Assembly: GCA_025917655.1 (NCBI GenBank)
Contig: CP084620.1
Span: 248,001-312,000, forward strand
Reading direction: 5' to 3'
DNA: 64,000 nt
Source: Chlorella sorokiniana
Taxonomy: Eukaryota > Chlorophyta > Trebouxiophyceae > Chlorellales > Chlorellaceae
Made by a program: the position numbers and the translations under genes. This document shows, in pieces, positions 6,194 through 63,577 of the stretch (position 1 is the stretch's first letter; every line of letters starts with the position of its first letter). The notes beneath the pieces are model-generated. The model saw only the letters and a list, made by a program, of their open reading frames with translations. It was not told where the DNA came from and made no database searches.

Positions 6194-16211
<10,018 letters not shown>

Positions 16212-16511
16212 TGCGCGTGCGGGCCAGCAGAGGAGCAGGGCGGGAGCCGGATGGCAGCGCCGCTGCCCGCCCCGTCGGCTGCTGCCCAGTGCCCGGACAT
16301 CTCCCTGCCCGGCGGCGTGGTGCTTGCACCCGTGCCTTGGAACCCCAGCATGCCGTTGGAAACTCATACCCACTGCTCTGATTGCCCTCCAGGCTGCCTT
16401 CAAGCATGTTGCTGCGCCCATGCTGACAGCGGCGGCAACTGCAGCGGCGTCAGTGCCCAACCTCTTGTCATGTGCTGTCAGCTGCTCACTTTGCAAGTCG
16501 CTGATCTGCTG

Positions 16512-16516
16512 TGTAA
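16512..16516 (+). terminator. Poly(A) signal TGTAA of PRP22
   Basis: TGTAA (TGTAATCATAAAC) about 300 bases past the stop codon. The same signal is carried in the downstream copies at 17489 and 21433. Confidence 0.5.
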
Positions 16517-16980
16517 TCATAAACTTCAATGGCTTTGCTCATCATGCATGCAGCCACTGGTAGAGCTGGCAATTGAGCGCTGTGCCAGCTGGGCAAACGC
16601 TGGGCTTGCAGGCCGCTTGAAGCGGCTGCCGGCTGCACGGCCTTGTGTCCATCCTTCTGCATGCCTTGTTAAGTGCGACGAGGCATCCAAACCCAAGACA
16701 GAGTTCCTGGCCGCCTGCTGCCGCAGTCTACAGCGCGGCTGAGTCCAGGGGAGTCACTGCCCCCTGCTCATTTGGGCATCATGAAGCATGCATGCCTGCT
16801 GGGTGAGTGGCCCGAGCCTGATGATCTCTTGGTTGGAAGCAGCCAGGCCCCCACCACCGGCCCCACCTTGTTTGGCCAGCCTGCCACAGCACAATGATCG
16901 CATCAATGCACATGGCCTGCCTGCGTGTGGCTGAACAGGCTGCTACCGGCCAGGCCGACAACGGTGGCGGCACCCAGCGG

Positions 16981-17890
16981 CGACCCTAATGATTGGCGTT
17001 TGAGCAAAGTGCGAAAAACCTTTTCTGTTGTGCTGTGCATGCTGTGCTGGCTGTGGCCGCGCCGCACGGCCACCTGCGGCCGTTGGGGCGTGGCTGTGGT
17101 CACCGCCAGTTGTGCTGCAGCTGCTGCTCCCTTGCTCAGACCGCTCACAGCGTGCCTTGTGCTGTTGCCCACCTGCAGAGGAGGGGCTGATGCGTGTGTG
17201 GGCCAGCGGAGGAGCAGGGCGGGAGCCGGCTGGCAGCGCCGCTGCCCGCCCCGTCGGCTGCCGCCCAGCGCCCGGACATCTCCCTTGCCGGCGGCGTGGC
17301 CCTTGCACCCGTGCCTTGGAACCCCAGCATGCCGTTGGAAACCTAAACCCACTGCTCTGATTGCCCTCCAGGCCGCCTGCAAGCATCTCGCTGCTCCCAT
17401 GCTGACAGCGGTGGCAACTGCAGCGGCGTCAGTGCCCAACCTCTTGTCATTTGCTGTCAGCTGCAATTCTGCAGTCGCTGATCTGCTGTGTAATCATAAA
17501 CTTCAATGGCTTTGCTCATCATGCATGCAGCCACTGGTAGAGCTGGCAATTGAGCGCTGCGCCAGCTGAGCAAACGCTGGGCTTGCAGGCCACTTGAAGC
17601 GGCGGCTGGCTGCACGGCCTAATGTCCATCCTTCTGCATGCCTTGTTACGTGCAAGGAGGCATCCAAACCCAAGACAGAGTCCCTGGCTGCCTGCTGCCG
17701 CAGTCGACAGCGCGGCTGAGTCCAGGGGAGTCGCTGCACCCGCTTCATTTGGGCATCATGAAGCATGCATGCCTGCTGGGTGAGTGGCTCGAGCCTGACA
17801 ATCTCTTGGTTGGAAGCAGGCAGGCCCCCACCACAACCCCGCCTTGTTTGGCCAGCGAGCCGCAGCACAATATTTGCCTCAAGGCACATG
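16981..17890 (+). pseudogene. Segmental duplication, copy 2 (PRP22 3'-end fragment)
   Basis: A direct copy of 16001-16910 that begins inside the penultimate PRP22 exon (CGACCCTAATGATTGGCG) and includes the intron, the final short exon, the stop and the 3' UTR with TGTAA. About 70 bases separate the copies. It has no helicase body, so it cannot make PRP22. It could act as an alternative terminal exon and poly(A) region if transcription reads through. Confidence 0.85.
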
Positions 17891-25203: not shown

Positions 25204-26374
25204 ATGCTGTGCTACCCGCCATATGCCATGCAGATTTGCTCGGCAGGCCTGGCCCTTCTGGCGCTGCTGGCGGTTGCGCATCGGTGAGGGCCGCCAATGC
25301 GTGGGGCGGCTGAGCCATGCGTCTTCGTTTGCTGCGCTGCTGGGGGCAAGCACCCGCTCATCCGACCCCTGCCGCCATGCGTCGCAACCGCCCGCTGTTG
25401 TCCTCCGCCCGGCTGCAGCGCCGATGGCTTCGTCATCAGAATTGGCAACATCAGGATTGACCCCATGCCCCCGCGGCACGTGCGCGAGGCGCTGAAGCAA
25501 GGCAACTTCAAGCCGCTCGTCACTAACATCGTTGGCGAGGCCGTTAAAGCGGGAGACCGTGTCGGGTGGGTGTGTGGGTTTGGGGGAAATGGGTGCGTGG
25601 TGCTGCACGGCTCAATCTGTGCGTGTCTGTGTGTATGCTGCCTGGCAAGTACGCGGGGCCGGCAGAGGGCCATTGCATACGTGCGCGTGCTTGATGCCAG
25701 CAGTTGGGCCAGGTTGCCTTTGCGTCGCGTGCCTGCGCTGGCTCCTGCCGCGCTGCAGCCGCACGTGCCTCTCTCTTGAGTGCTACCGTCTGGGCGCGCC
25801 CCCACCCGCTGCTGCAGGCTGGACGTGGGCAGGGCTCTGCCCCCGGCGTTGCCAACGCCGCCCGGCGCGGCGACGCCGACGGTTTTGTCAAGGCGGTCCA
25901 GGAGGCGCCTGCGTCGGTGCCCTGCGTGCGCTGCAGGAGGCGAGCGAGGTTGTGGTGCCGCTGGCTGCGGGCTCGCTCACCGCCTGGACGCAGCTCAGCC
26001 GCCTGATCAACACCCAGCCCTACCTGACCTGCCCCGCCGGCCACGTGGCGCGCCCCAAGCCCGGCGCCCTCCCTCCCACCACCAACGGCTGCGGCCCCAA
26101 CGGCGCGGCGCTGCCCAAGGGCATCGTGCTGCCCGGCTTCACGGCCTGCTGCAACGCCCACGACACCGGCTACGCACGCTGCGGCTCCTCGCAGCGCCAG
26201 GCCGACGACGCCCTCTACCTCTGCCTGCGCGCGGCGTGCAACAGCCTGGGCAACACCGACCCCCGCCGCGTCACCTGCCCCACCTCTGCCTACGCCTACT
26301 TTGCTGCCGTCACCAACTTTGGCGGGGCGGCGTACCGCAGCGGGCAGGAGCAGTGTGAGTGTGTGCCTGCATGA
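25204..26374 (+). CDS. Secreted phospholipase A2-like protein (group XII type)
   Basis: Phospholipase A2 enzymes cut the sn-2 acyl chain of phospholipids and need calcium. The start at 25204 is followed by a hydrophobic segment (ICSAGLALLALLAV) that fits a signal peptide. An upstream ATG at 25075 would give a longer hydrophobic N terminus. Exon 2 (25419-25560) reads GFVIRIGNIRIDPMPPRHVR, which I do not recognise. The last exon (about 25936-26374) holds the catalytic domain: NGCGPNG, LPGFTACCNAHDTGYARCG with the CCxxHD motif (catalytic His, calcium Asp), then DDALYLCLRAACN. The cysteine spacing is closest to animal PLA2G12. Joining of the middle exon (25820-25935) is uncertain. TGTAA lies at 26634. 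Confidence 0.75.
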
Positions 26375-37124: not shown

Positions 37125-38403
37125 AGGGCCCCGGATTATAAGTGGCGAACGTTTCCTTCGACCCCGTTTGCTGATGTGGCAAAGCTCTGACCGGCTCGTG
37201 CAGGCGGCAGCAGCGTGTAGCAGCGGTCGCTCCTCGGAAATTCGCCAGTGCACGCGCCGGGCAACAGAATAATCAAGGAAAGGCGGAAAATTGTGACGGC
37301 GGGCTGGGGCGGTGCGTGCGTTGACCGCTGCCTTGGTCGCGCCGAAGCCGGTACGGTACTTCGGAAACAATCCCTTTTCCAGGCGGCTATTTTCTACAGA
37401 AGAACCTTATTATGTAGAGTCTGTGCGACAGAAATAAATTGTTATTCGCTGGCTCTTGTTCTGACCAGTCGCAAAACGATACAGTAACGCGACAAGGAGG
37501 TTTCTGTTGGTTTGCATATCCATCAATATCTCCTTTCGAAACAACAGATCACACGGCTGCTTTCGACAGGGCGGCGGCAATTTCTGCAGCTTTGTGACTT
37601 GCCGCCGCCACTGTTGCGGGGCAGCAAGCTACGCTGTTGCCACGCCTTGAGACTTCAGCACGCACATCCCGCCCGTCGTTTGATTCACACTGAAACAGGC
37701 GGGTGTCCTTGAGCTGCAAGCAGCACGCCTGCGCCAAACACCTACGTGCACGCAGGCGCAGATGTGTCGGGTAATCAGCTCACAAGGCCAACTTGCCAGC
37801 AACCACTTAAGAGTGGGTGGGTATAGCGCGCAGTTTGCTCACACGCTCGATGCGGTATCAGTCCTGTGGACTCTCCCTAGTGCTCCCCTGTCCCACACCC
37901 ATGCACACCTCACTTCCATGCTCATATCATGCTGCATGCCTTGGTGCTGACTAAATGCAAGCCTGATGTCATGCCGCCTGTCATGCGGCAGGGAGCCCAG
38001 CTGTTGCCCTACCCCGCTACTGCCCGGCAGCTTTGAACAAACGGAAAATAGCAATCATGCATCTTGACTCGCCGTCGAGGGCGGTTATGCACGGTTAGGA
38101 TGCATAGTTACAGAGCCGCCCCTTTGACGGCGGCAGCCTGAGCCTGCGCGTGCACACCACCTTCACGCGCATTGCAGCAAGTCGTTACACAGCATGGGTG
38201 TAGCGCAGATTTGCCTATGCCCAGCAGCTACACGTCTTATCTCCAAACACCTTTAATCCTCACATAGTCCCTACCTCGTCAGCCACAACGTCATCACTTG
38301 CACGCTGGTGGTCTGGCGGTAACTGGCAACTCCTCTCGACCCCCTGAAGCCCGGAGGGCGTCCTCAGACGGGGCCCCAAACCTCCTCAGGGCATTATTTC
38401 AAG
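37125..38403. repeat. 1.27 kb unknown repeat, copy 1
   Basis: Begins AGGGCCCCGGATTATA and ends GACGGGGCCCCAAACCTCC...GGCATTATTTCAAG. It matches 38421-39680 in the same orientation along nearly its whole length with many substitutions and small indels. No credible protein is encoded. It lacks clear terminal inverted repeats beyond a short GGGGCCCC near each end, so I cannot assign a transposon class. An imperfect hairpin lies at 38076-38125. Confidence 0.85.
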
Positions 38404-38420
38404 ACATGATCCTGCTAGTT

Positions 38421-39680
38421 AGGGCCCCGGATTATAATAGTGAAGGGGTTTTGTGACGTCACGACAGGTCAGCATGCACCTCGCTGACCGGCTTGTGCAC
38501 GCGATAACAGCGTTTAGCAGCGACGGCTGCTGGAAATTCCGTCAGTGCACGCGCCGAGCAACGTAAAAATTTACGTGAAGCAGAAAATCGCGATGGACGG
38601 CTTGGGTGGTGCGTGCGTTGACCGCTGCCTTGGTCGCGCCGAGGCGGTACGGTACTTCGGAAGCAATCGCGGTGTCAGGCGGCTATCTCCTACAAAAGAG
38701 CGTTGTTTTGTGGATTCTATGCGCCAAATATGCATTCTCTGGCTCTTGTCTTTCTGACCAGTCGCAAAACGATCAGTGCGTTTGGTGGGTTTCTGTTCGT
38801 TTTTCATATCCATCAATGTCGCATCTCGACGAACTTCCGACTGCCCACTTCCGAATGGGCAGCGGGCAATACCTGCAGCGTTGTGACTTGCCGCCGCCGC
38901 TGTTGCGGAGCAGCGAGCTACGCTGCTGCCCGCCGTGAGACTCCAGCATGCACATCCCGCCCGTTGCGTGATTCACACTGACACAGGCGGGTGTCCTTGA
39001 GCTGCAAGCGGCACGCCTGCGCCCAACACCTACGTGCACGCAGGCGCATGTGTGTTGGGTAAGCAGCTCGCATGGCTAACCTGCCTGCAACCACTTAAGA
39101 GTGGGTGGGTGTGGCGCGCAGTTGGCTCACTCTCTCGATGCGTTTCATGCCAGTGGTCTTTCCCAAGTGCTCCCACTCCGCAATACACCCACGCACATCC
39201 CACTTGCATGCTCATACCATGCTGCATGCTTAGTGCTGGCCAACTGCACTCCAGATGTCATGCCGCCTTTCATGCCGCAAGGAGCCCAGCTGCTGCCCCA
39301 ACCTGCCACTGTCCGACAGCTGTGAACAGCAAAATAGCAGCCATGCATCGTCAAGGGCGGCTATGTACGATTAGGATGCATGCTTACATAGCCGCCCTTC
39401 ACGGCGGCAGCCCGCGTCTGTCCGTGCACACTATACTTCACGCACATTGTAGCAAGTCCTTGCACAGCTTGGGTGTGGCGCAGGTTCACCTATGCCCAGC
39501 AGCTCACGCATCCTACCTCCGAGCATTGTTTAATGTTCACATTGTCCCCACCTCGTCATCCACAACGTCATCACTTGCAGACCAATGGTCTGGCGGTAAC
39601 TGGCAACTCCACTCAACCCCCTGAAGCCCGGAGGGCGTCCTCAGACGGGGCCCCAAACCTCCTCAGGGCATTATTTCAAG
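38421..39680. repeat. 1.27 kb unknown repeat, copy 2
   Basis: Direct copy of 37125-38403, starting 17 bases after it ends. The matching hairpin region at 39353-39399 has a perfect 15 bp stem (AAGGGCGGCTATGTA / TACATAGCCGCCCTT) around a 17-base loop, while copy 1 keeps a weaker stem at the same place. Confidence 0.85.
39353..39399. other. Hairpin conserved between the two repeat copies
   Basis: Perfect 15 bp stem and 17-base loop within repeat copy 2. In copy 1 the equivalent segment (38076-38125) keeps the GGGCGG/CCGCCC base of the stem and the loop core GGTTAGGATGCAT or close to it. It may be a structured RNA element, but this is inference. Confidence 0.6.
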
Positions 39681-54171: not shown

Positions 54172-57100
54172 ATGGCGCCCAAACGCAAGCAGGGGCCGGC
54201 CTCCGGCCCCTCCACGCCAGGAAAACGCCTTGAGCCGGTCCAGCTGGAGTATGACAGGCGAGTCGGACTTTCAAGAAGGCTCCAAGGCAGCCTGCGCGCC
54301 ATTCTCAAGGGCGTCTTGTCACGGCTCGAGCAACCGCCATCGCCGCCGCCGCCGCCGCCTGCTCTCCCGCTACAACCCGTAGCCTGACCAGATGCTGATT
54401 GGATGCTGTTGACTTTTTGCAGAGCCCAAGAAGCACGCGCGGCCCGCGTGGCAGCAGCAGCCGCGGCAGCGCGGCCCGTCCGCCTGCGTGTCACTCGGGA
54501 GCCGGCGCCACCGCTGGCGCGCGGAGAGGGCTTGGTCTTTATGGCCCTGGATGTGGTGGAGGAGGCGCAGGTGGAGCGCTACAGGGGCTATGACTGGGCA
54601 GCGCCCTCGGATTTTCCATGAGCGTCCCATGAACCCTCGTGGCAGCCAGAAAAGTACTCTTGACGTCCTGCTCAATCCACATCGTACGCTGGTCACCGTT
54701 TTACTTCCCCCTGTCCCCGGCAGGGCCGCTTTCACGTCTGGGGCACCACCGCGGCCGGCGCCTCCGTGCTGCTGCGCCTCACCGGCTTCCAGCCCTACTT
54801 CTACGTGGCGGCGCCCAAGGGGCAGGTGGTTCCTGTGGGAGTGGCATCGAGCTCTCGCGAAAACACGTCAAGGGGGAGGGGGCGTTTACTCTTGGTTGCA
54901 AGCCCTGTGACAACCTCTGGCATGAGGAGCACAGGCGTCAGGGCCTATCGCCAGCCAGGGGTCAGATGCAGCGCTGGGCAGCGCTGCCAGCCTTTTCAGG
55001 GTTCAGCGCAGGCCTCTTACCACCACCTGCTGACAACAACCCCCACCACCACCACCCACCCACCCACACACACACACCCACCCCTCTTTCAGGCCGCTGT
55101 CAGCGGCGACGAGGAGGCGCGGGGCAGCCAGGCCGCCGACACGGACATAGAGTGGGACGAGGAGCAGCTGGAGCGGCTGCGGGTGGGTGGCTGTGGGTGG
55201 CAGGGTGGTGGCAGCCTGGCGCACTGGAGGGCAAGTTTCCTTGGGTTTGCAGGAGTGCTGCTGGGTGGCCGCAGAGTGCCAGCATGCTGGATGGCAAGCT
55301 GCCTTGCCCGCAAACTTGAAACACACTCGTTGGTTCCCCTTGCCCAGTTGCAAAACAAACGCTGCTGTGCGCTGCCTGTTCGCTGCAGGGCCTGCTCAAC
55401 CGCCAGCTGCCCAGCGACTGCCGCCTGACACGCGTGGAGGCGCTGCGCCGGACGCCCATCATGTTCTATCGGCAAGCTTGCGCTGCGCCGCTGCTTGTAT
55501 TTGTTTCCTTGCCAGCACATGTATGCCCACTGTGATGGCGATGCAGCTGCCCCTAGCCAGAGCTAGGGCAAGTGCGGCCAGGAGTGCCCGGCACCCCCTT
55601 TGGTAGCGATTGTATCGCACCGCGGAGATGCGCCCCCACCACACACACACACACCATCCCACCCCCTCATCGGCCCTCGCCCCCTTCCCTGGGGCGCGTC
55701 CCCTCCGCGCTCCCCACCCCCATCCACTCGCCCCTCTGCCTCCCACACGCAGACCCGACCGGCCCCAGGGCGACACCTTCATGCGGCTGGTGCTGGGGGC
55801 AGGGGCCAGCGCCAAGCGCGGCGCGGCGGCCTTTGAGAAGGCCATGGCTTCCGGCCACCTGAGGCATGAGGTGGGAGGGTGGGTTGGGTGTGAAGACGGA
55901 AGGGCAATCGCGGAGGGGAAACGACGCAGTGCAACTGGCACGGGGGCTGAGCTCGATCAGTGTGCTGTACAATACGTGATGTTGCATTTGCATCCTGGAG
56001 CGACGGCGCTGCGCATTGAGCCCGGCCACCCTGTTTCATTCCTCCCCCTCCAAGCAGGGCTTGGTCTGGCGGGATTTGACTGTCTATGAGGCAGAGGTGC
56101 AGCCGCTGCAGCGCCTGCTGGCTGACGTGCCTCTCAGCGGCGGCGCCTGGCTGTACGTGCCGCCCGCCCCGAGGGCGCCAGCAGCGCCCAGGCGCAGAGC
56201 GCTGCCGGCTGGCAGGACGTGCCCCCTGCCGAGCGGATCAGCAGCTGCGACGTCGAAGTTGCTGCGCCCTGCCAGGCGGTGTGCTGCCTGACGCCCGACG
56301 CCACACAGCTGGCAGACCCGGCCTGGAGCCCCTTCCCCAGCTGCCTGCTGGCAGACGACGCAGCCGCAGACGACGCTGCGGCAGTGCCCCCTGCAGCGGC
56401 AGAGGCGGCGGCGGCGGCCAAGCGCGGCGACATAGCGGGGCTGCGCATGTGTGTGACGGATGTGCTCTGTGCTGCGGCGGATGGCGCAGACAGGTGGGCA
56501 GCCTCCGGGCCTCAGCTGCCGCAAGAACCGGACGTTGGCTCGAGGCACTGCTTTGCGTTTGTTTGTTCCGCTCGTATATTCATGGCAGCCATCATCCACA
56601 CAATCCCCCGTCTGCCCACACATGCAACGCACCCTCCTCGTGAACCCCTTGCAGGGTAGCTGTGCCCAGCCAGGGAGATCCAGTCGTGGCAGTTACCGCC
56701 ACCTTTTTCCCCTTTGCCACCGCCAGGCACAGCGTCGAGTCGACGCCGCCGCAGCAGCAGCAGCAGCAGGGAGGCGCAGCGGGGCCCCCTCAGGGAAGCG
56801 ATGGGTTGGGGGCGGCGAGCTGGGTGGCGGCTTGGAGGGCGAGGAGGAGGGGGAGGGCGCCGTCGTTGTGGCCTCGCTGGCGGCTGTTGCGGGGGCCTGT
56901 CGGCGCGGGCCCCCGCCGCGCCTCGGCCACCCAAGCCCCGGGCCTGCCAGGCGCAGCAGCTGCCGCTGCCCAGCAGGAGACCCTGGTCTTCTTGCTGCAC
57001 CCTGCTGCGGCCGCTGTGCACGCTGAAGTGGCAGAGCGCAGCGTGGCGGTGGGGCGGCGCCGCCGCCGCCCGCGTCCTTCTCTTCGCCTCTGAAGCCGAG

Positions 57101-60100
57101 CTGCTGCTGACGTGGGCAGAGTGCGTGCGACAGGCGGATCCTGACGTCGTTGCACTGTTTGAGGTGAGATGGGGTTGGAGGGAACTGCTGGGGAGTCAAT
57201 GAGGTTCTTCCTTCCCCAGCAACGGCAGGGAAGGGAAAACCCTTCAGGGAGGGATGAGTGCCCCCTCTGTGGCTGCTGGGGGTACGTGCAGCTGCTTCTC
57301 TCAACGCGCAAGATGGGCATTGCCGAATGCAGATCCAATGCTAGGGGTCGGGGCCTACAAGGGCTCATCGTGCATGCTGCCGCCCGCCCACCCCCAGGTC
57401 AACGACACGCTGGCGGTACTGCAGCAGCGCTTTGCGGCGCTGGGGCTGGAGGGCGGCGCGCTGCAGGCAAGCACAGCCTGGGCCCACCCGGCGCTGCGTG
57501 AGCGCCTGCACGCGGCCCTTCTTGATTGGCATTTTAGGAGGGGCAACCAGCGCTACGCGCACCCGGGGTGTTCTCTCAAGGTACCTGCCCTTACTGCCCC
57601 CCTGCTCCCCCCTCCCCCATTCAGCTGTCGCGCCTGCTGCGCTGCGCTGCGCGCGCCCGCTGTCCCTCAAGAAGGTGACCATGTACTCGGCGCAGTGGGT
57701 GCGCTCCCAGAGCCGCATGAGCTCCACCAGCAACCAGGAGACGTGGAGGTGGGCTGCGTGCCCAGTTGCCTGCTGCAGGCTGCCGGGAAGAGCAGCGGGC
57801 GAGGCGGCAGGGCTGCGGAAGGCGGGGCGGGACGCTGCGTGGTGCCAAGCTTGCAGCGGCTGACGCCCGTCGATGGCTTGCTCGGCAGGGGCCAAGCTGT
57901 TCGCAGTCTCGCCGAGGCCCCCACCATCCCCCCACACAATAAAGAAACAAAAGGAAGCCCACCCCCATGACGATCGCCGACCTGCTGCTGCATCACCCTC
58001 CTCCTCCTGCCATTGCACCCTTTACTGCAGGGCCGACATCGACGGCCGCATTGTGGTGGATGCTGCGCCAGGTGCCCTTCTGCTGGCCTTGCATGCTCGG
58101 CGCCCCCGCATGGCACCATCAAACACGCAGGCCGCCACCAAGCGATGCAGAACCTGCTGTGCTTTTCTGATGAGCTGCGGGATCGAGATGCCTGCCCCTC
58201 TTTCCTGGCGGCTCTGCAGGTGCTGACAGCCCAGAACTTGGCATCCTTCTCGCTGGTAGACTGCGTGCAGAGCCTGCTGGGCCAGACGATTGAGGTGGGC
58301 ATGCGCGTGTGTTAAGGTTGACAGGGTGGCTTGCTCCAGGGAATGCATGAGGGCGCAGCAGGCAGCGCCGATGGCCTGCAAGGAGACAGTTGAAAGGACG
58401 ACGAGAATAGGAGGGGCTGGGTTTAAACTCTGGTCAGCTTTGTTGCAGGCCCCAAGAGGGCTGCCGTCCTATGTGCAAGCCGGTGCCGTCCCGTGTGCAA
58501 CCCGCGCTTTGTTGTGGCATGCAGGTGTTGCGACCTGGCCGCCTGGCCGCGCTGGCTGGCCTGGCCGGCGCCCCGCAGCAGCCCCTGCTCGGGTCCCGCC
58601 TGCCGCCCCCGCCGCCGCCGCGGCGGATGCGCTGCGAATCGCGCGCTACGCGCTGCGCCGCGGCGACGCTGTCGCCAGCCTGCTGCACCGCCTGGCCACG
58701 CTGCCCGAAATGGTGGAGATGGCTCGCGCCACGGGGCTCACCTTGCAGCAGGCAAGCTATGCACTGCGCGACTACACACTGTAGTTCTGTCCACAAAGTG
58801 TGCGGCACGCCAGTCTCCGGCCGCTGCCCACCCCCTGCCGCACGCCGCCGCCCACACCGCGGGCCGCTGCCCACTGGCCGCCCGCAGGCCGCCTACAACG
58901 CCCAGATGATCCGCACGTATAGCCTGCTGCTGCGCACCGCGCGGCGCCAGGGCTTTTTGGTGCCAGGGCGGCAGGAGGCGGGGCAGCTGCAGGAGCACAC
59001 CTTCATCCTGCACCCAGTGGAGGAGGGTCAGTTTTATCGTTTTGTTTCCTACTATTTTTTTGTTTCTGGTTGTTTTGTTGGGGGCACCTGTTTGCACCGC
59101 GATGTAGCAGCCGCCGCCCCTCGTCCCACCGCCGCCAGGTCAGCTACAACGCCCAGCTGGCCCGTTCTTGGAGCCTGGTTCTGCGCTGCGCGGGGCGGGC
59201 CCGCGTGGTGGTGGGCGGGCGCGAGAACCCCGCCCTGCTCAGCGAGCCGCCGTTCCTGCTGCATCCCGCGGAGCAGGGCACGTTTGCAGCGCTGCAGGGC
59301 TGCTGCCGCCTGCCGCCGCCGCCGCTTCAGTTGCTGCCGCCTGTCGCACGATCGCTGCTGCTGCGCTGACTCTGCTCGCCTGCTCCCCACCCCCAGTGCC
59401 GCATTCCCAGGATGTACTGGCCCTCTGTCCAGCCGCTACACGTCCCAAACTGCCCCTCAATCCCCCCGATGGCGTGCAGGCACTGTGGGCCTCTACAAGC
59501 AGCCGGTTGCCATCCTGGACTTCGCCTCCCTCTACCCCTCCATCTACCGCGCCCACAACCTGTGCTACACCACCCTGGTGCACAGCGGCGACTTGGAGCG
59601 CCTGCCGCCCGAACAGCTGACGGTCACGCCCACGGGTGAGAGGATCTGGAGATACTATAAAGCAGTTTTTGATGGGGGAGGGGGAGCTGCTGTTGGGCTA
59701 AAGGCAGGGGGTGCATGGTCCAGGCCATGCTGCGTACATGTATCAGGAAGCAGGGTGGTCTGCCTGGAACAATACAGAAAGCAGGGCAGTCCACCTACAG
59801 CGATGCGCTAGCCTGCTCTGCGGCAAGCGCAGGCCTGGCCACGCAAAAGCTGAGCAGCTGGTGCCCGCCGCTCCCTGCACGCCCGCAGGCGCCGCGTTTG
59901 TCAAGCCGGACGTGCGGCCGGGCATCCTGCCCGGCATCCTGGCTGCGCTGATTTCAGCGAGAGCGTGAGCCCCCAGCCCTTTCTCTCTGGTTGCCACATT
60001 CATGCCCAGTAACTTGTTCAATGCTCTCACCTCAACCCTGTGCTGCCGCATCGCCTGCTTCATCCGGCTTCCGCGTTGCTTTGGTCCCACCTGGCAGGCC

Positions 60101-63100
60101 GTGCCTGCCCGCCTCCCCCGGGCATCAACCCTCTTCACCCCCTCCATCCAACCCTGCCTGCCCTGCAGCGCCACGCGAGAGCAGCTGAAGGCGGCGGCAG
60201 ACCCCGCGGCCCGCGCCGTGCTGGACAGCCGCCAGAAGGCGCTGAAGGTGACGGCCAATGCGCTCTACGGCTTCACCGGCGCCGCCGCCCGCCGCTGCAG
60301 TGCATCCAGCTGGCGGACAGCTGCCTGGCGTACGGGGCGCAGAGCTGCAGGTGGGCCCGCTCTTCTTGTTTTCTTTATTTCATTAGTGGATTGTGTGTGT
60401 GTGTGGGGGGGGTGTATGTGTGTGTGTGTGTGTGTGTGTGGGGGGGGGCAGCTGCCTGTTGAGGCTTGCTGATCCCTTGGGACCCAAAGCGATCCTGCTC
60501 GTACCTGCTGCCCTGCATTTGCCGGCTATGAGTGATGGTGGGTTCATCAGCTCTCGGAGGAACGGGCCCCCAGCTTCCCCGCCACACACGCAGCCGCATC
60601 TCTCACGCCTGCCCTGCATGCTGCCAGGCGGGCCAAGGAGGTGCTGGAGGCGGCGGCGGCCGGCGGCCAGCTGGCGCCCCACGGCGGCGGCGCCCGCGTG
60701 ATCTATGGCCACACAGACAGCCTGTTTGTGCTGCTGCCCCAGGTGGGCTGGCCTTCATCTGCTCTGTCATGGCTCAAAAACTCTTCCCCAGTGTGAGGAA
60801 GCGGGGGGCTAAGGACGGGCAGACGACAGGGCTGTGTGCGGGGGCACGATGTGTGTTGGCCATTCCGCCATGGTTGTGCTGTTGGCCCCCCCCACATACA
60901 CGCACACCGCCCAACCCACCCACCCACCTCCACCCCGGACCCCTGCAGGCGGCAGACCCCGTGCAGGCCATTGCTGCTGGCCGCCTCGCTTCCCGGGTGG
61001 TGTCGGCCGCCTTTCCTCCACCCATGGAGCTCAAGTTTGAGCGCGTGTGCCAGCCCTTCATGCTGCTGCACGTCAACAGGTGCCTTCCCGGCGTTCCGGC
61101 AGCTGCCCTCTGCAGGCAGCCGCAGCCGCAGCTCGGCAGTCCTTTGCGGGGGTCGCGCCCAGCCCATTCTGTCAATGCTGACCCAGCTGCTCCTTCTCTG
61201 TTGCTCAGGCTACTGCTGTTTACATTGCTGTTGGTATGGATAGCGATCCGGCTTTTCTATGCGAATGCAGGTATGCGGGACGCGCGTTTGAGCGGGAGGA
61301 GGATGTTGAGCGGGGCGGAGAGCTGATCTGCAAGGGGGTGAAGAGCATGTGGCGCCAGGTAATAGGCTGCCTTCAATTCATTTCGAACCGCATTCTCTGC
61401 CCAGCATGTGTTGCCTCATCGTGGGGTGCCACACGGGCATGCAACACGACGCATGTTGCATGCGACCAGCACTTGCCGCGGCTGTGGCTGTGGCATGTTC
61501 ACCAGAGCTTTTGCTGTGTGCGCTGCCCCCCCTGCAGACAGCCCCCATCCTGCGCACCACGCTGCATGGAGCACTGGAGCGCATCCTCATGCGGGACGAC
61601 CTCAGGTACAGCTGTACCGCCAAAGCGCTGTACCGCACTGCCTCTGCCAACACCTGCTGCAGCACAGGGACCCGGGGCTGGCGGGCGTGTATGCCACAGC
61701 AGCCTGGCTGTTGCCGCCAGGCTCCCTTGGTTCACTTGCTGCTCAGCTGCTTACTGGCTGTGTTCTGCCAGCTTCTACACCTGCTATGCTGCTGCATCCT
61801 TTGCACCGCTCTAGCGTGGCCCCTCCCTTCTCCTTGCAAGCACTGCTTCCCGCTGCGCTTGCCACAGGGGTGCCCTGGCGTTTGTGGCAGGGGAGGTGCG
61901 GCGCTTGCTGAGCGGTCGGGTCGAGCTGCACGAGCTGGTGATGACGGGGGCCTGTGGCGGCTGACGGGGAGCAGGTGGAAGCGCGGCGGCCGAGGCGGGG
62001 CCCAGCACAGAGGAAGTGCGGGTGAGCGGCTGGAGCAGGCAGAGGCGGCGGTGTCGCTTAAGCCGCCTGCATGCCTACGCCACTGGCTGTGTGCACTTGA
62101 TTGTGGCAACACTGGACTGCATGTCGTTGCGTGCGCTCCCTAGCAGGGACCACATGCAGCGCTGGCCGTCAGGCTCAGCCAGCGCGACCCTGGCCGCTCC
62201 TTTGTGCTGGTGAGCAGCGGCCTGCTGCCGCCCGCCGGTGCACGGAGCCGCAATTGCTTCAACAGTTGGCAGACCACAGCAAGCTGTGTGCATGCGGCAG
62301 GGCTGCAAGTAGTGGCTGCTGGCTGCTGTTGCTGCAGCAGATGCACCGGCCATGGACCGCCCATTGTACCGCAGGGCGAGCGGCTGCAGTACGTCCTGCT
62401 GGCCGGGAGCGGCTGCAGGAAGATGCGGCAGAGGACCCGCTGACGGCGGCGCGGGCGGGGCTGGAGGGCGACTACAGCCTGTACTGGAAGGTACCGCCTG
62501 TTACTGCCTGGTGGCACTGTGTGCTCCAGGCAGTGGACTGTGCCCGCGCGCATCGGTTCCCTTGCATTGCCGCCTCCGCGCTTGCGTTTCCAGCATACCT
62601 CCCCTCATACAGCTGCTCCCGAGACGCCATCACGATCCACCGCCGCAACCACCCACCCCCGCAGAACAAGCTGATCAAGCCGCTGCAGGAGGTGTTCAAG
62701 GCGGCGGTACCGCCAGCTCAGCAGGGGGCGGTGCTGGCGGAGCTGCTGGGCGGGGACCATACGCGGGTCAGGGTGGACGCGCTGAGCCCGCCCCCGCGCT
62801 GGGACCAGCTAGCCCGCCGCCGCGCGCGGCCGCGGCAGGGGTAAGCTTCACCTCCAGTACCTGAGCTGCACACGCAGTCAGCGAGCTACATGGCTTCATA
62901 TTGTAAAGTCTGCAGCAGAATGCATCAACTGAAGCTGTGGTGCCTTGCTTTGGCGGTCCGGCATGTGCAGGGAGCGGCGGCGGCGGCGGCGGCGGCACCC
63001 CGCCCGCCAGTCCCACATGGGGCTCTTCTTCCGCCCTGTGCCTAAGTGCCTGGGCTGCAGGGCCAGCATGCCCAGCTACAAGGGGCCGCTCGACGACGCT

Positions 63101-63577
63101 CCGGGGCTGTGCGACAGCTGTGCGGGGTGAGGGGGTGGTGCCTGGTGGTGGTGGTGGTGGTGGGGGGGCAGCCACTTTCCATGGGGGACTTCCTGCTGCG
63201 CGACCATGCTCTTCCTCAGCAGCCCAACAGCCCAAAAGCACCGCCCAGCAGCGCGCACTGCTTGCGTAGTTGGGCCGTCTGGCTGTGATTCACGATGCTA
63301 TGCCAATGTAACCCTTAAGCCTTATTCCTTGCCCTCATGCCTTTGCAGCAAGGAGGGCAGGTGGGAGGAAACGTACCTAGGCCTGCTGGACGATCAGGCG
63401 GCGGCCGAGGCACGGCAGAGCGCAGCGTACTCGGCCTGCGCAGCGTGCCACAGCGGCGGCGCCAGCGGCCCGGTCCTTTGCGAAAACGGCGAGTGCCCTT
63501 TCACCTTCACGCGCCTCGCATGCAGCAGCCGGGTGCAGCAGGTGGACAAGCAGCTGCGGCGGCTGGACATCTTCTGA
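54172..63577 (+). CDS. Diverged DNA polymerase delta-like catalytic subunit (B family), exonuclease motifs lost
   Basis: The likely start is at 54172 (MAPKRKQGPASGPSTPGKRL). N-terminal exons match POLD1 in outline: VFMALDVVEEAQ (54537), WGTTAAGASVLLRLTGFQPY (54740). The exonuclease region aligns with POLD1, but FDIE is TDVL (near 56460), the NxxxFD motif is lost (DPDVVALFE/VNDTL, 57140 and 57397), and YxxxD is YALRR (58650). The palm is better kept: motif A LDFASLYPSIYRAHNLCYTT (59516), motif B LKVTANALYGFTGA (60240), motif C YGHTDS instead of YGDTDS (60706), and VNRYAG where POLD1 has KKRYAG. LGGDHTRV (62748), the CysA module (CLGCRAS...CDSC, 63050) and the CysB module (CAACHS...CENGECPF, 63440) are intact. 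TGA at 63575. Best read as a POLD1 paralog, since a sole replicative copy should keep these residues. One base appears missing near 60290. Confidence 0.8.
58888..59026 (+). other. Polymerase alternative exon A
   Basis: 139 bases, phase 0 to phase 1, peptide beginning AAYNAQMIRTYSLLLRTARR and ending FILHPVEE. Flanked by CGCAG and GGTCAG. It aligns with the POLD1 segment just before motif A (QLLRQAMHEGLLMP). Confidence 0.8.
59139..59277 (+). other. Polymerase alternative exon B (duplicate of exon A)
   Basis: Also 139 bases, phase 0 to phase 1, peptide beginning VSYNAQLARSWSLVLRCAGR and ending FLLHPAEQ. By my count 21 of 46 residues are identical to exon A. Acceptor CCGCCAG; the donor would be GC type (G/GCACGT). 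Including both exons would shift the frame, so only one can be used per transcript. Confidence 0.75.
60390..60450. repeat. (GT)n and poly-G tract in a polymerase intron
   Basis: Two GT microsatellite stretches each joined to runs of G, within the intron between motif B and motif C exons. Confidence 0.8.

What the first reader, a model, noticed from the sequence alone, without database searches (positions are those of the whole stretch)
58888..59277. Mutually exclusive exon pair inside a DNA polymerase
Two adjacent exons of exactly 139 bases share phase (0 to 1) and 21 of 46 residues, and both keep an acceptor. Each joins in frame to the upstream exon (ending 58751) and to the motif A exon (starting 59480). 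Using both shifts the frame. This is the classic layout for mutually exclusive splicing, which would swap a 46-residue block just before catalytic motif A. I know of no such case in a B-family polymerase.
Basis: partly seen in the sequence, partly recalled or inferred. Interest (0 to 1): 0.85.

Follow-up and report, generated by a model that had tools for sequence, protein, structure and literature searches.

The report
Twin alternative exons, algal polymerase-delta-like gene
A gene resembling the catalytic subunit of DNA polymerase delta, probably from a green alga, carries two related versions of one exon, and only a message that includes exactly one of them stays in frame, so the cell may swap a 46-residue piece of the enzyme; RNA evidence is still needed.

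Summary
Exons A (58888-59026) and B (59139-59277) are both 139 bp, phase 0 to 1, with 21 of 46 residues identical; the next best match to A in the window is far weaker. Only A alone or B alone keeps the frame. The gene is a divergent relative of POLD1, the Pol delta catalytic subunit. Amino-acid similarity between A and B is higher than expected had B been dead since the duplication (3-8% of such simulations reach it), and B has no indel or stop. Mutually exclusive use is the best reading (about 0.5). Against it: B has the weakest acceptor measured, a GC donor, and fewer conserved POLD1 residues than A. No RNA and no relatives could be reached. One-base frameshifts in it also occur in two conserved control genes, so they may be assembly errors. 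The kind is known: an equal-length pair is verified in Volvox cyn23. My limited searches found none for POLD1.

The parts
54535..63577 (+). approximate extent of a POLD1-like gene (many exons); the 5' limit is uncertain because the N-terminal part is weakly conserved; stop TGA at 63575-63577
   Evidence: N-terminal match to POLD1 126-158 not significant (E 0.11); polymerase domain 247 bits to 6s1m; C-terminal zf-C4pol E 1.5e-5, 25.6 bits, below its cut-off of 28.9, and 34 bits to 7kc0
58617..58751 (+). upstream exon (end of the exonuclease domain), ends in phase 0 at a GC donor CAG|GCAAGC; by reading the sequence the exon probably starts near 58525, with a one-base frameshift before 58617
   Evidence: spliced alignment to POLD1; donor score above 18 of 28 local donors with the GT/GC position left out
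58888..59026 (+). exon A, 139 bp, phase 0 to 1; acceptor CCGCAG, donor AGG|GTCAGT
59027..59138 (+). A-B intron, 112 bp, shorter than all 28 reference introns (137-387); bases 7-66 are 58% T against 7-47% in the 28
59139..59277 (+). exon B, 139 bp, phase 0 to 1; acceptor GCCAG (weakest measured), donor AGG|GCACGT (GC type)
59480..59635 (+). motif A exon (DFASLYPSI), entered in phase 1 from either A or B; donor CGG|GTGAGA
60701..60721 (+). motif C reading IYGHTDS; His codon at 60710-60712 where both POLD1 templates have Asp

Best explanation
A tandem duplication of one exon in a divergent POLD1-like gene gave two alternative coding exons, A and B. The spliceosome joins the upstream exon (58751) to either A or B and then to the motif A exon (59480). 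Only single inclusion keeps the frame, so double inclusion and double skipping give out-of-frame messages. The swap changes a 46-residue block just before motif A. Shown: the duplication, equal length and phase, the frame logic. Supported by modelling: joint protein-level constraint on the pair. Inferred: that both are spliced in vivo, and that choice is favoured by weak sites (weak A donor followed by a T-rich stretch, weak B acceptor, GC donors upstream and on B) and perhaps by the unusually short A-B intron. A is probably the default exon and B the minor one.
For: Homology far above chance. Identical length, no indel and no stop in B; zero stops alone has probability 0.345-0.372 under neutral decay, so it counts little. 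BLOSUM 105 at the observed DNA divergence is reached by 0-0.8% of single-branch neutral runs, 0-1.0% of both-neutral runs, 3.2-8.0% of A-constrained/B-dead runs, and 62.8-68.6% of runs with both under relaxed constraint. The fixed-omega likelihood is higher at omega 0.1 than at 1 by 10.2 lnL units (window codon frequencies) or 5.1 (pair frequencies). B's third-position GC is 0.91, equal to A; the adjacent introns have 0.53-0.71 GC. Exactly one exon is needed for frame. WebScipio criteria met. GC-AG introns are 7.7% in a GC-rich Chlorella (PMC3033335, passages), so a GC donor need not be dead. Precedent in a green alga: Volvox cyn23, two 106-nt exclusive exons verified by RT-PCR (PMC4378016, passages).
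Against: No RNA. No relative confirmed in viral contigs or genome contigs. B's acceptor scores below all 28 reference acceptors, and 11% of 3,977 AG sites in the window score as well; its GC donor, with position +2 left out, is above only 1 of 28, and 10% of 8,966 GC sites score as well. B keeps 3 of 23 positions shared by the two POLD1 templates, A 7 of 23, the rest of the aligned region 111 of 215; A against B is not significant, p 0.28. pN/pS is 0.89, bootstrap 0.55-1.47, which shows no constraint. Weaker statistics do not separate B-dead well: its runs reach the observed 21 identities in 26-41% and the 30 positives in 6-13%. Strong constraint on both is also disfavoured: 105 or less in 6-7% of runs at strength 0.2 and 0.4-1.4% at 0.1. 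Same-codon use at identical residues (15 of 21) is higher than in nearly all both-constrained runs, which lacked codon bias. No intron pairing beyond shuffles. In human, 1,399 of 6,541 candidates were validated at one read per criterion, 855 at three; others lacked data.
Confidence: 0.5

Rival explanations
1. Exon B is a dead or dying duplicate. Exon A alone is spliced, and B is passed over as part of a 453-base intron (59027-59479).
For: B has the weakest acceptor and a GC donor, keeps fewer POLD1 residues (3 of 23 against 7 of 23), lowers the Pfam score from 238 to 220 bits, and with B the Pfam match starts only after the exon. pN/pS is near 1 by simple counting. Identity alone (21 of 46) is reached in 26-41% of B-dead simulations.
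Against: BLOSUM similarity is reached in only 3.2-8.0% of A-constrained/B-dead simulations. No indel, no stop, same GC3. AG and GC are found at the exact ends. Recent death after a long functional life is not excluded.
Confidence: 0.28
2. The whole gene is a decaying or non-essential POLD1 paralogue. The exon pair is real but belongs to a gene losing function, so splicing choice has little consequence.
For: 39% identity to 6s1m POLD1 over 374 residues while the two POLD1 templates share 63%; motif C YGHTDS, ExoIII Asp to Arg, KKRY to VNRY; several apparent frameshifts or stops.
Against: Frameshifts of the same kind occur in an 84%-identical DHX8 stretch (12550) and in a photolyase (42819): 2 in 982 aligned codons, against about 4-5 in an estimated 620 here, Fisher p 0.21 or 0.12. 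They may therefore be assembly errors. Motif A and motif B are kept, and the C-terminal cysteines align.
Confidence: 0.17
3. Assembly artefact: two alleles or a collapsed repeat placed side by side.
For: The assembly contains apparent one-base errors.
Against: The two exons are only 64% identical in DNA, and the 100-base flanks are weakly alike at most (upstream score reached by 6.7%, downstream by 0.7% of 300 shuffles). Alleles would be far closer.
Confidence: 0.03

Closest known systems
Volvox carteri cyn23 mutually exclusive exons 4 and 5 (PMC4378016, passages read)
   Same: green alga; two exons of identical length (106 nt, also 1 mod 3) encoding alternative versions of one block
   Different: verified by RT-PCR there; the isoforms differ at 13 residues, whereas here 25 of 46 differ; a cyclophilin-related protein, not a polymerase
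Predicted or validated mutually exclusive exons in animals (WebScipio, PMC3228551, abstract and sections 5 and 13; human set, PMC5740500, passages)
   Same: similar length, phase and homology; [quoted passage not shown]
   Different: no transcript support here; gene and lineage differ
POLD1, catalytic subunit of DNA polymerase delta (PDB 6s1m, human; 3iay, 7kc0, 6p1h, yeast; the species labels are recalled)
   Same: palm domain order, motif A, motif B, C-terminal cysteine modules
   Different: much more divergent (39% to 6s1m); motif C Asp to His; ExoIII Asp to Arg; no YxGA stretch in either exon version

Membership tests
mutually exclusive exons from tandem duplication | adjacent homologous exons of similar length and same phase | tested here: met
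   139 and 139 bp, phase 0 to 1, 45% relative BLOSUM score
mutually exclusive exons from tandem duplication | usable splice sites on both copies | tested here: inconclusive
   AG acceptors on both; GT donor on A, GC on B; A's acceptor is strong, the other three sites score low by a local matrix from 28 introns
mutually exclusive exons from tandem duplication | joint inclusion not productive | tested here: met
   A+B and neither both shift the frame
mutually exclusive exons from tandem duplication | transcripts carry one or the other and not both | not testable with these tools
   no RNA data available
mutually exclusive exons from tandem duplication | both copies conserved across species | tested here: inconclusive
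   no relatives confirmed in two collections not meant for eukaryotes; constraint inferred only from the pair itself
POLD1 (Pol delta catalytic subunit) | best match to POLD1 rather than to other B-family polymerases | tested here: met
   247 bits to 6s1m and about 201 to three other Pol delta chains; Pol zeta 125, herpesvirus-type polymerases 120-123, archaeal-type about 93 or less, Pol alpha 69 or less (60 of 82 matches shown; the group labels are partly recalled)
POLD1 (Pol delta catalytic subunit) | motif C YGDTDS | tested here: not met
   YGHTDS at 60704-60721; a base error in the assembly is not excluded
POLD1 (Pol delta catalytic subunit) | ExoIII YxxxD | tested here: not met
   YALRR against YCLKD, position 515 of 6s1m by alignment
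POLD1 (Pol delta catalytic subunit) | ExoI and ExoII residues | tested here: inconclusive
   the rest of the exonuclease domain did not align beyond 37 residues; match of the joined region E 0.048
POLD1 (Pol delta catalytic subunit) | C-terminal cysteine modules | tested here: met
   cysteines align to 6s1m 1011-1098; zf-C4pol E 1.5e-5 but below its curated cut-off

The most novel reading that the evidence does not exclude
A Pol delta-like paralogue that has lost canonical catalytic and proofreading residues uses exclusive splicing to swap the block that leads into the active site, giving two isoforms of a possibly structural or regulatory polymerase subunit that still carries the C-terminal module by which, as recalled, POLD1 binds its partner subunit.
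Probability: 0.15. Interest if true: 0.75.

Novelty: new member of a known kind. Interest (0 to 1): 0.45.

Why it matters
If both exons are used, this would be a splicing switch in the core of a replicative-type DNA polymerase. I saw no such case in the listings of my searches: 20 listed of 112 papers, 2 of 2 and none held; the library lacks most subscription journals. It would also add to the Volvox cyn23 case in green algae. The altered motif C and exonuclease residues raise the separate question of whether some algae keep a non-catalytic Pol delta relative.

Tried and rejected
Own-genome search failed because no genome is held. Relatives: viral contigs gave 25 pattern matches and genome contigs 373, none confirmed as a relative, so sister-species conservation could not be tested. 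A third copy in the upstream intron (suggested by the reading ASYALRDYTL after 58752) was rejected: its alignment to exons A and B is reached by 51% and 75% of shuffles. In the same call the intron after B against exon A was reached by 3.7% of shuffles; with seven comparisons I took this as chance and did not follow it. Competing intron pairing: the three duplex energies were weaker than the shuffle means, reached by 90-95% of shuffles. Pol zeta (Rev3) identity, my first guess, was rejected by scores. Both exons constitutive: rejected by frame. Decay of the whole gene from its frameshifts: weakened because DHX8 and photolyase carry them too. Codon-model optimisation ran to unbounded branch length, so only the fixed-omega profile is used. 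Rfam (gathering thresholds) and tRNA scans of the window gave nothing. Searches for an inactivated Pol delta paralogue gave no paper or one on bacterial polymerases, seen as a listing only.

Reference introns: 28, from DHX8 (12 of 13 found), photolyase (9 of 9) and this gene (7 of 9 found). Dropped before counting: the DHX8 row at 11320 (GC donor, poor site, likely misplaced), the row at 59044 (misjoined by template similarity) and the row at 58752 (scored separately). Introns found later were not added. The matrix was trained on the same introns it ranks.

Full report
What is there. The window is GC-rich (59-68% in 4-kb blocks) with many short introns; a green alga is my inference, not a tool result. 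No whole genome is held for it. Exon A (58888-59026) and exon B (59139-59277) are each 139 bases with AG acceptors, and share 21 of 46 residues and 89 of 139 bases. Among 127,720 translated positions of the window, exon B is by far the best match to exon A (105, next 24). A scan for similar translated 40-residue blocks within 3 kb on one strand (score 70 or more) listed rows from two long tandem duplications, a leucine-rich-repeat pair, low-complexity pairs, and this exon pair.

The gene. Joined exons match POLD1 6s1m at 247 bits, three other Pol delta chains at about 201, Pol zeta at 125, herpesvirus-type polymerases at 120-123 and archaeal-type ones at about 93 or less (60 of 82 matches shown). 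The species labels human for 6s1m and yeast for 3iay and 7kc0 are recalled. Pfam DNA_pol_B gives 238 bits with exon A and 220 with exon B; with B the match begins only after the exon. The C-terminus has a zf-C4pol match below its curated cut-off and aligns to Pol delta chains. The gene is unusually divergent: 147 of 374 aligned residues (39%) identical to 6s1m, while 6s1m and 3iay share 238 of 376 (63%). Motif C reads YGHTDS, the ExoIII Asp is Arg, and neither A nor B holds a YxGA stretch, which both templates have before motif A. That YxG(A/G) is a DNA-binding motif of family B, the motif names, and the role of the motif C Asp are recalled and come from no call.

Is the gene broken? Spliced alignment found one frameshift in 374 aligned codons, another in a 71-codon stretch near 62.4 kb and none in 82 codons at the C-terminus. 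By reading frames there is another before 58617 and a stop or pair of shifts near 61.95 kb. Most of the exonuclease domain did not align to the template, so its state is unknown. The same kind of one-base shift occurs in a DHX8 helicase that is 84% identical to its template in that part (12550) and in a photolyase (42819): 2 in 982 aligned codons. Taking 4 or 5 in about 620 codons here (620 is my estimate), Fisher p is 0.21 or 0.12. I read these as assembly errors, but gene decay is not excluded.

Splice sites. Against a matrix from 28 local introns (137-387 bases), leaving out the GT/GC position, the upstream GC donor is strong (above 18 of 28), A's donor is weaker than all 28, and B's GC donor is above 1 of 28. 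A's acceptor is strong (above 22 of 28), B's is below all 28, and the motif A acceptor is above 3 of 28. In the window 11% of AG sites and 10% of GC sites score as well as B's acceptor and donor. The A-B intron (112 bases) is shorter than all 28, and its bases 7-66 are 58% T against 7-47%. GC-AG introns are reported at 7.7% in Chlorella sp. with a GC-rich genome (PMC3033335, passages), so B's donor is not a fatal defect.

Alive or dead? Simple counting gives pN/pS 0.89 (bootstrap 0.55-1.47), which shows no constraint. That measure may be saturated: at the 21 identical residues 15 codons are the same, against 13.0 expected at saturation. Methods that weigh the kind of amino-acid change favour constraint. 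BLOSUM 105 is reached by 0-0.8% of single-branch neutral simulations, 0-1.0% of both-neutral runs, 3.2-8.0% of A-constrained/B-dead runs, and 62.8-68.6% of runs with both under relaxed constraint. Other measures are weaker: B-dead runs reach the 21 identities in 26-41% and the 30 positives in 6-13%. Strong constraint on both fits poorly (105 or less in 6-7% of runs at 0.2, 0.4-1.4% at 0.1). The fixed-omega likelihood falls from -294.6 at 0.1 to -304.8 at 1 with window codon frequencies, and from -303.7 to -308.7 with pair frequencies. These tests concern the pair jointly and assume simple mutation models. They disfavour B having been dead since the duplication but cannot exclude recent death. 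B retains 3 of 23 positions shared by the two POLD1 templates, A 7 of 23, the rest of the aligned region 111 of 215. A is nearer the ancestral form, but the block was probably already unusual before the duplication, because A and B share YNA where the templates have SRG or ARG.

Mechanism. Only A alone or B alone joins the upstream exon to motif A in frame. Mutual exclusion could thus be enforced by loss of non-productive messages, helped by weak sites and a short A-B intron; intron-intron pairing showed no signal. With both exons the shifted frame stays open through the motif A exon, so decay by an early stop is not shown. [quoted passage not shown]

Compared with what is known. The pair meets the WebScipio prediction rules (PMC3228551, abstract and sections 5 and 13). 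A verified green-alga precedent exists: Volvox cyn23, two exons of 106 nt (PMC4378016, passages). In human, 1,399 of 6,541 candidates were validated at one read per criterion, others lacking data (PMC5740500, passages). Tandem exon duplication is reviewed in PMC9013439 (passages). Searches for POLD1 or Pol delta with exclusive exons (20 listed of 112, 2 of 2; listings only) and for tandem exon duplication in algae (none) showed no described case; the library lacks most subscription journals.

Verdict. The altered active-site residues deserve as much attention as the exon pair.

Noticed in passing
60704-60721 and 58647-58661: The POLD1-like gene reads YGHTDS for motif C and YALRR for the ExoIII YxxxD; its KKRY motif is VNRY. 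It may be a catalytically altered paralogue.
   Followed up: partly
12550 and 42819: One-base frameshifts inside a conserved DHX8-like helicase gene and a photolyase-like gene, suggesting indel errors in the assembly.
   Followed up: partly
about 16083-17790: Near-identical tandem duplication with a period of 977-979 bases; coding status not tested.
   Followed up: no
about 37230-39680: Diverged tandem duplication with a period of about 1277-1297 bases; coding status not tested.
   Followed up: no
25928-26353: Open stretch matching Group XII secretory phospholipase A2 (Pfam PLA2G12, E 1.3e-13).
   Followed up: no
2322-2455: Minisatellite, 32-base unit, 4.3 copies.
   Followed up: no
59033-59092: T-rich stretch (58% T) just after exon A's weak donor, above all 28 reference introns in the same interval; a possible splicing element.
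   Followed up: partly
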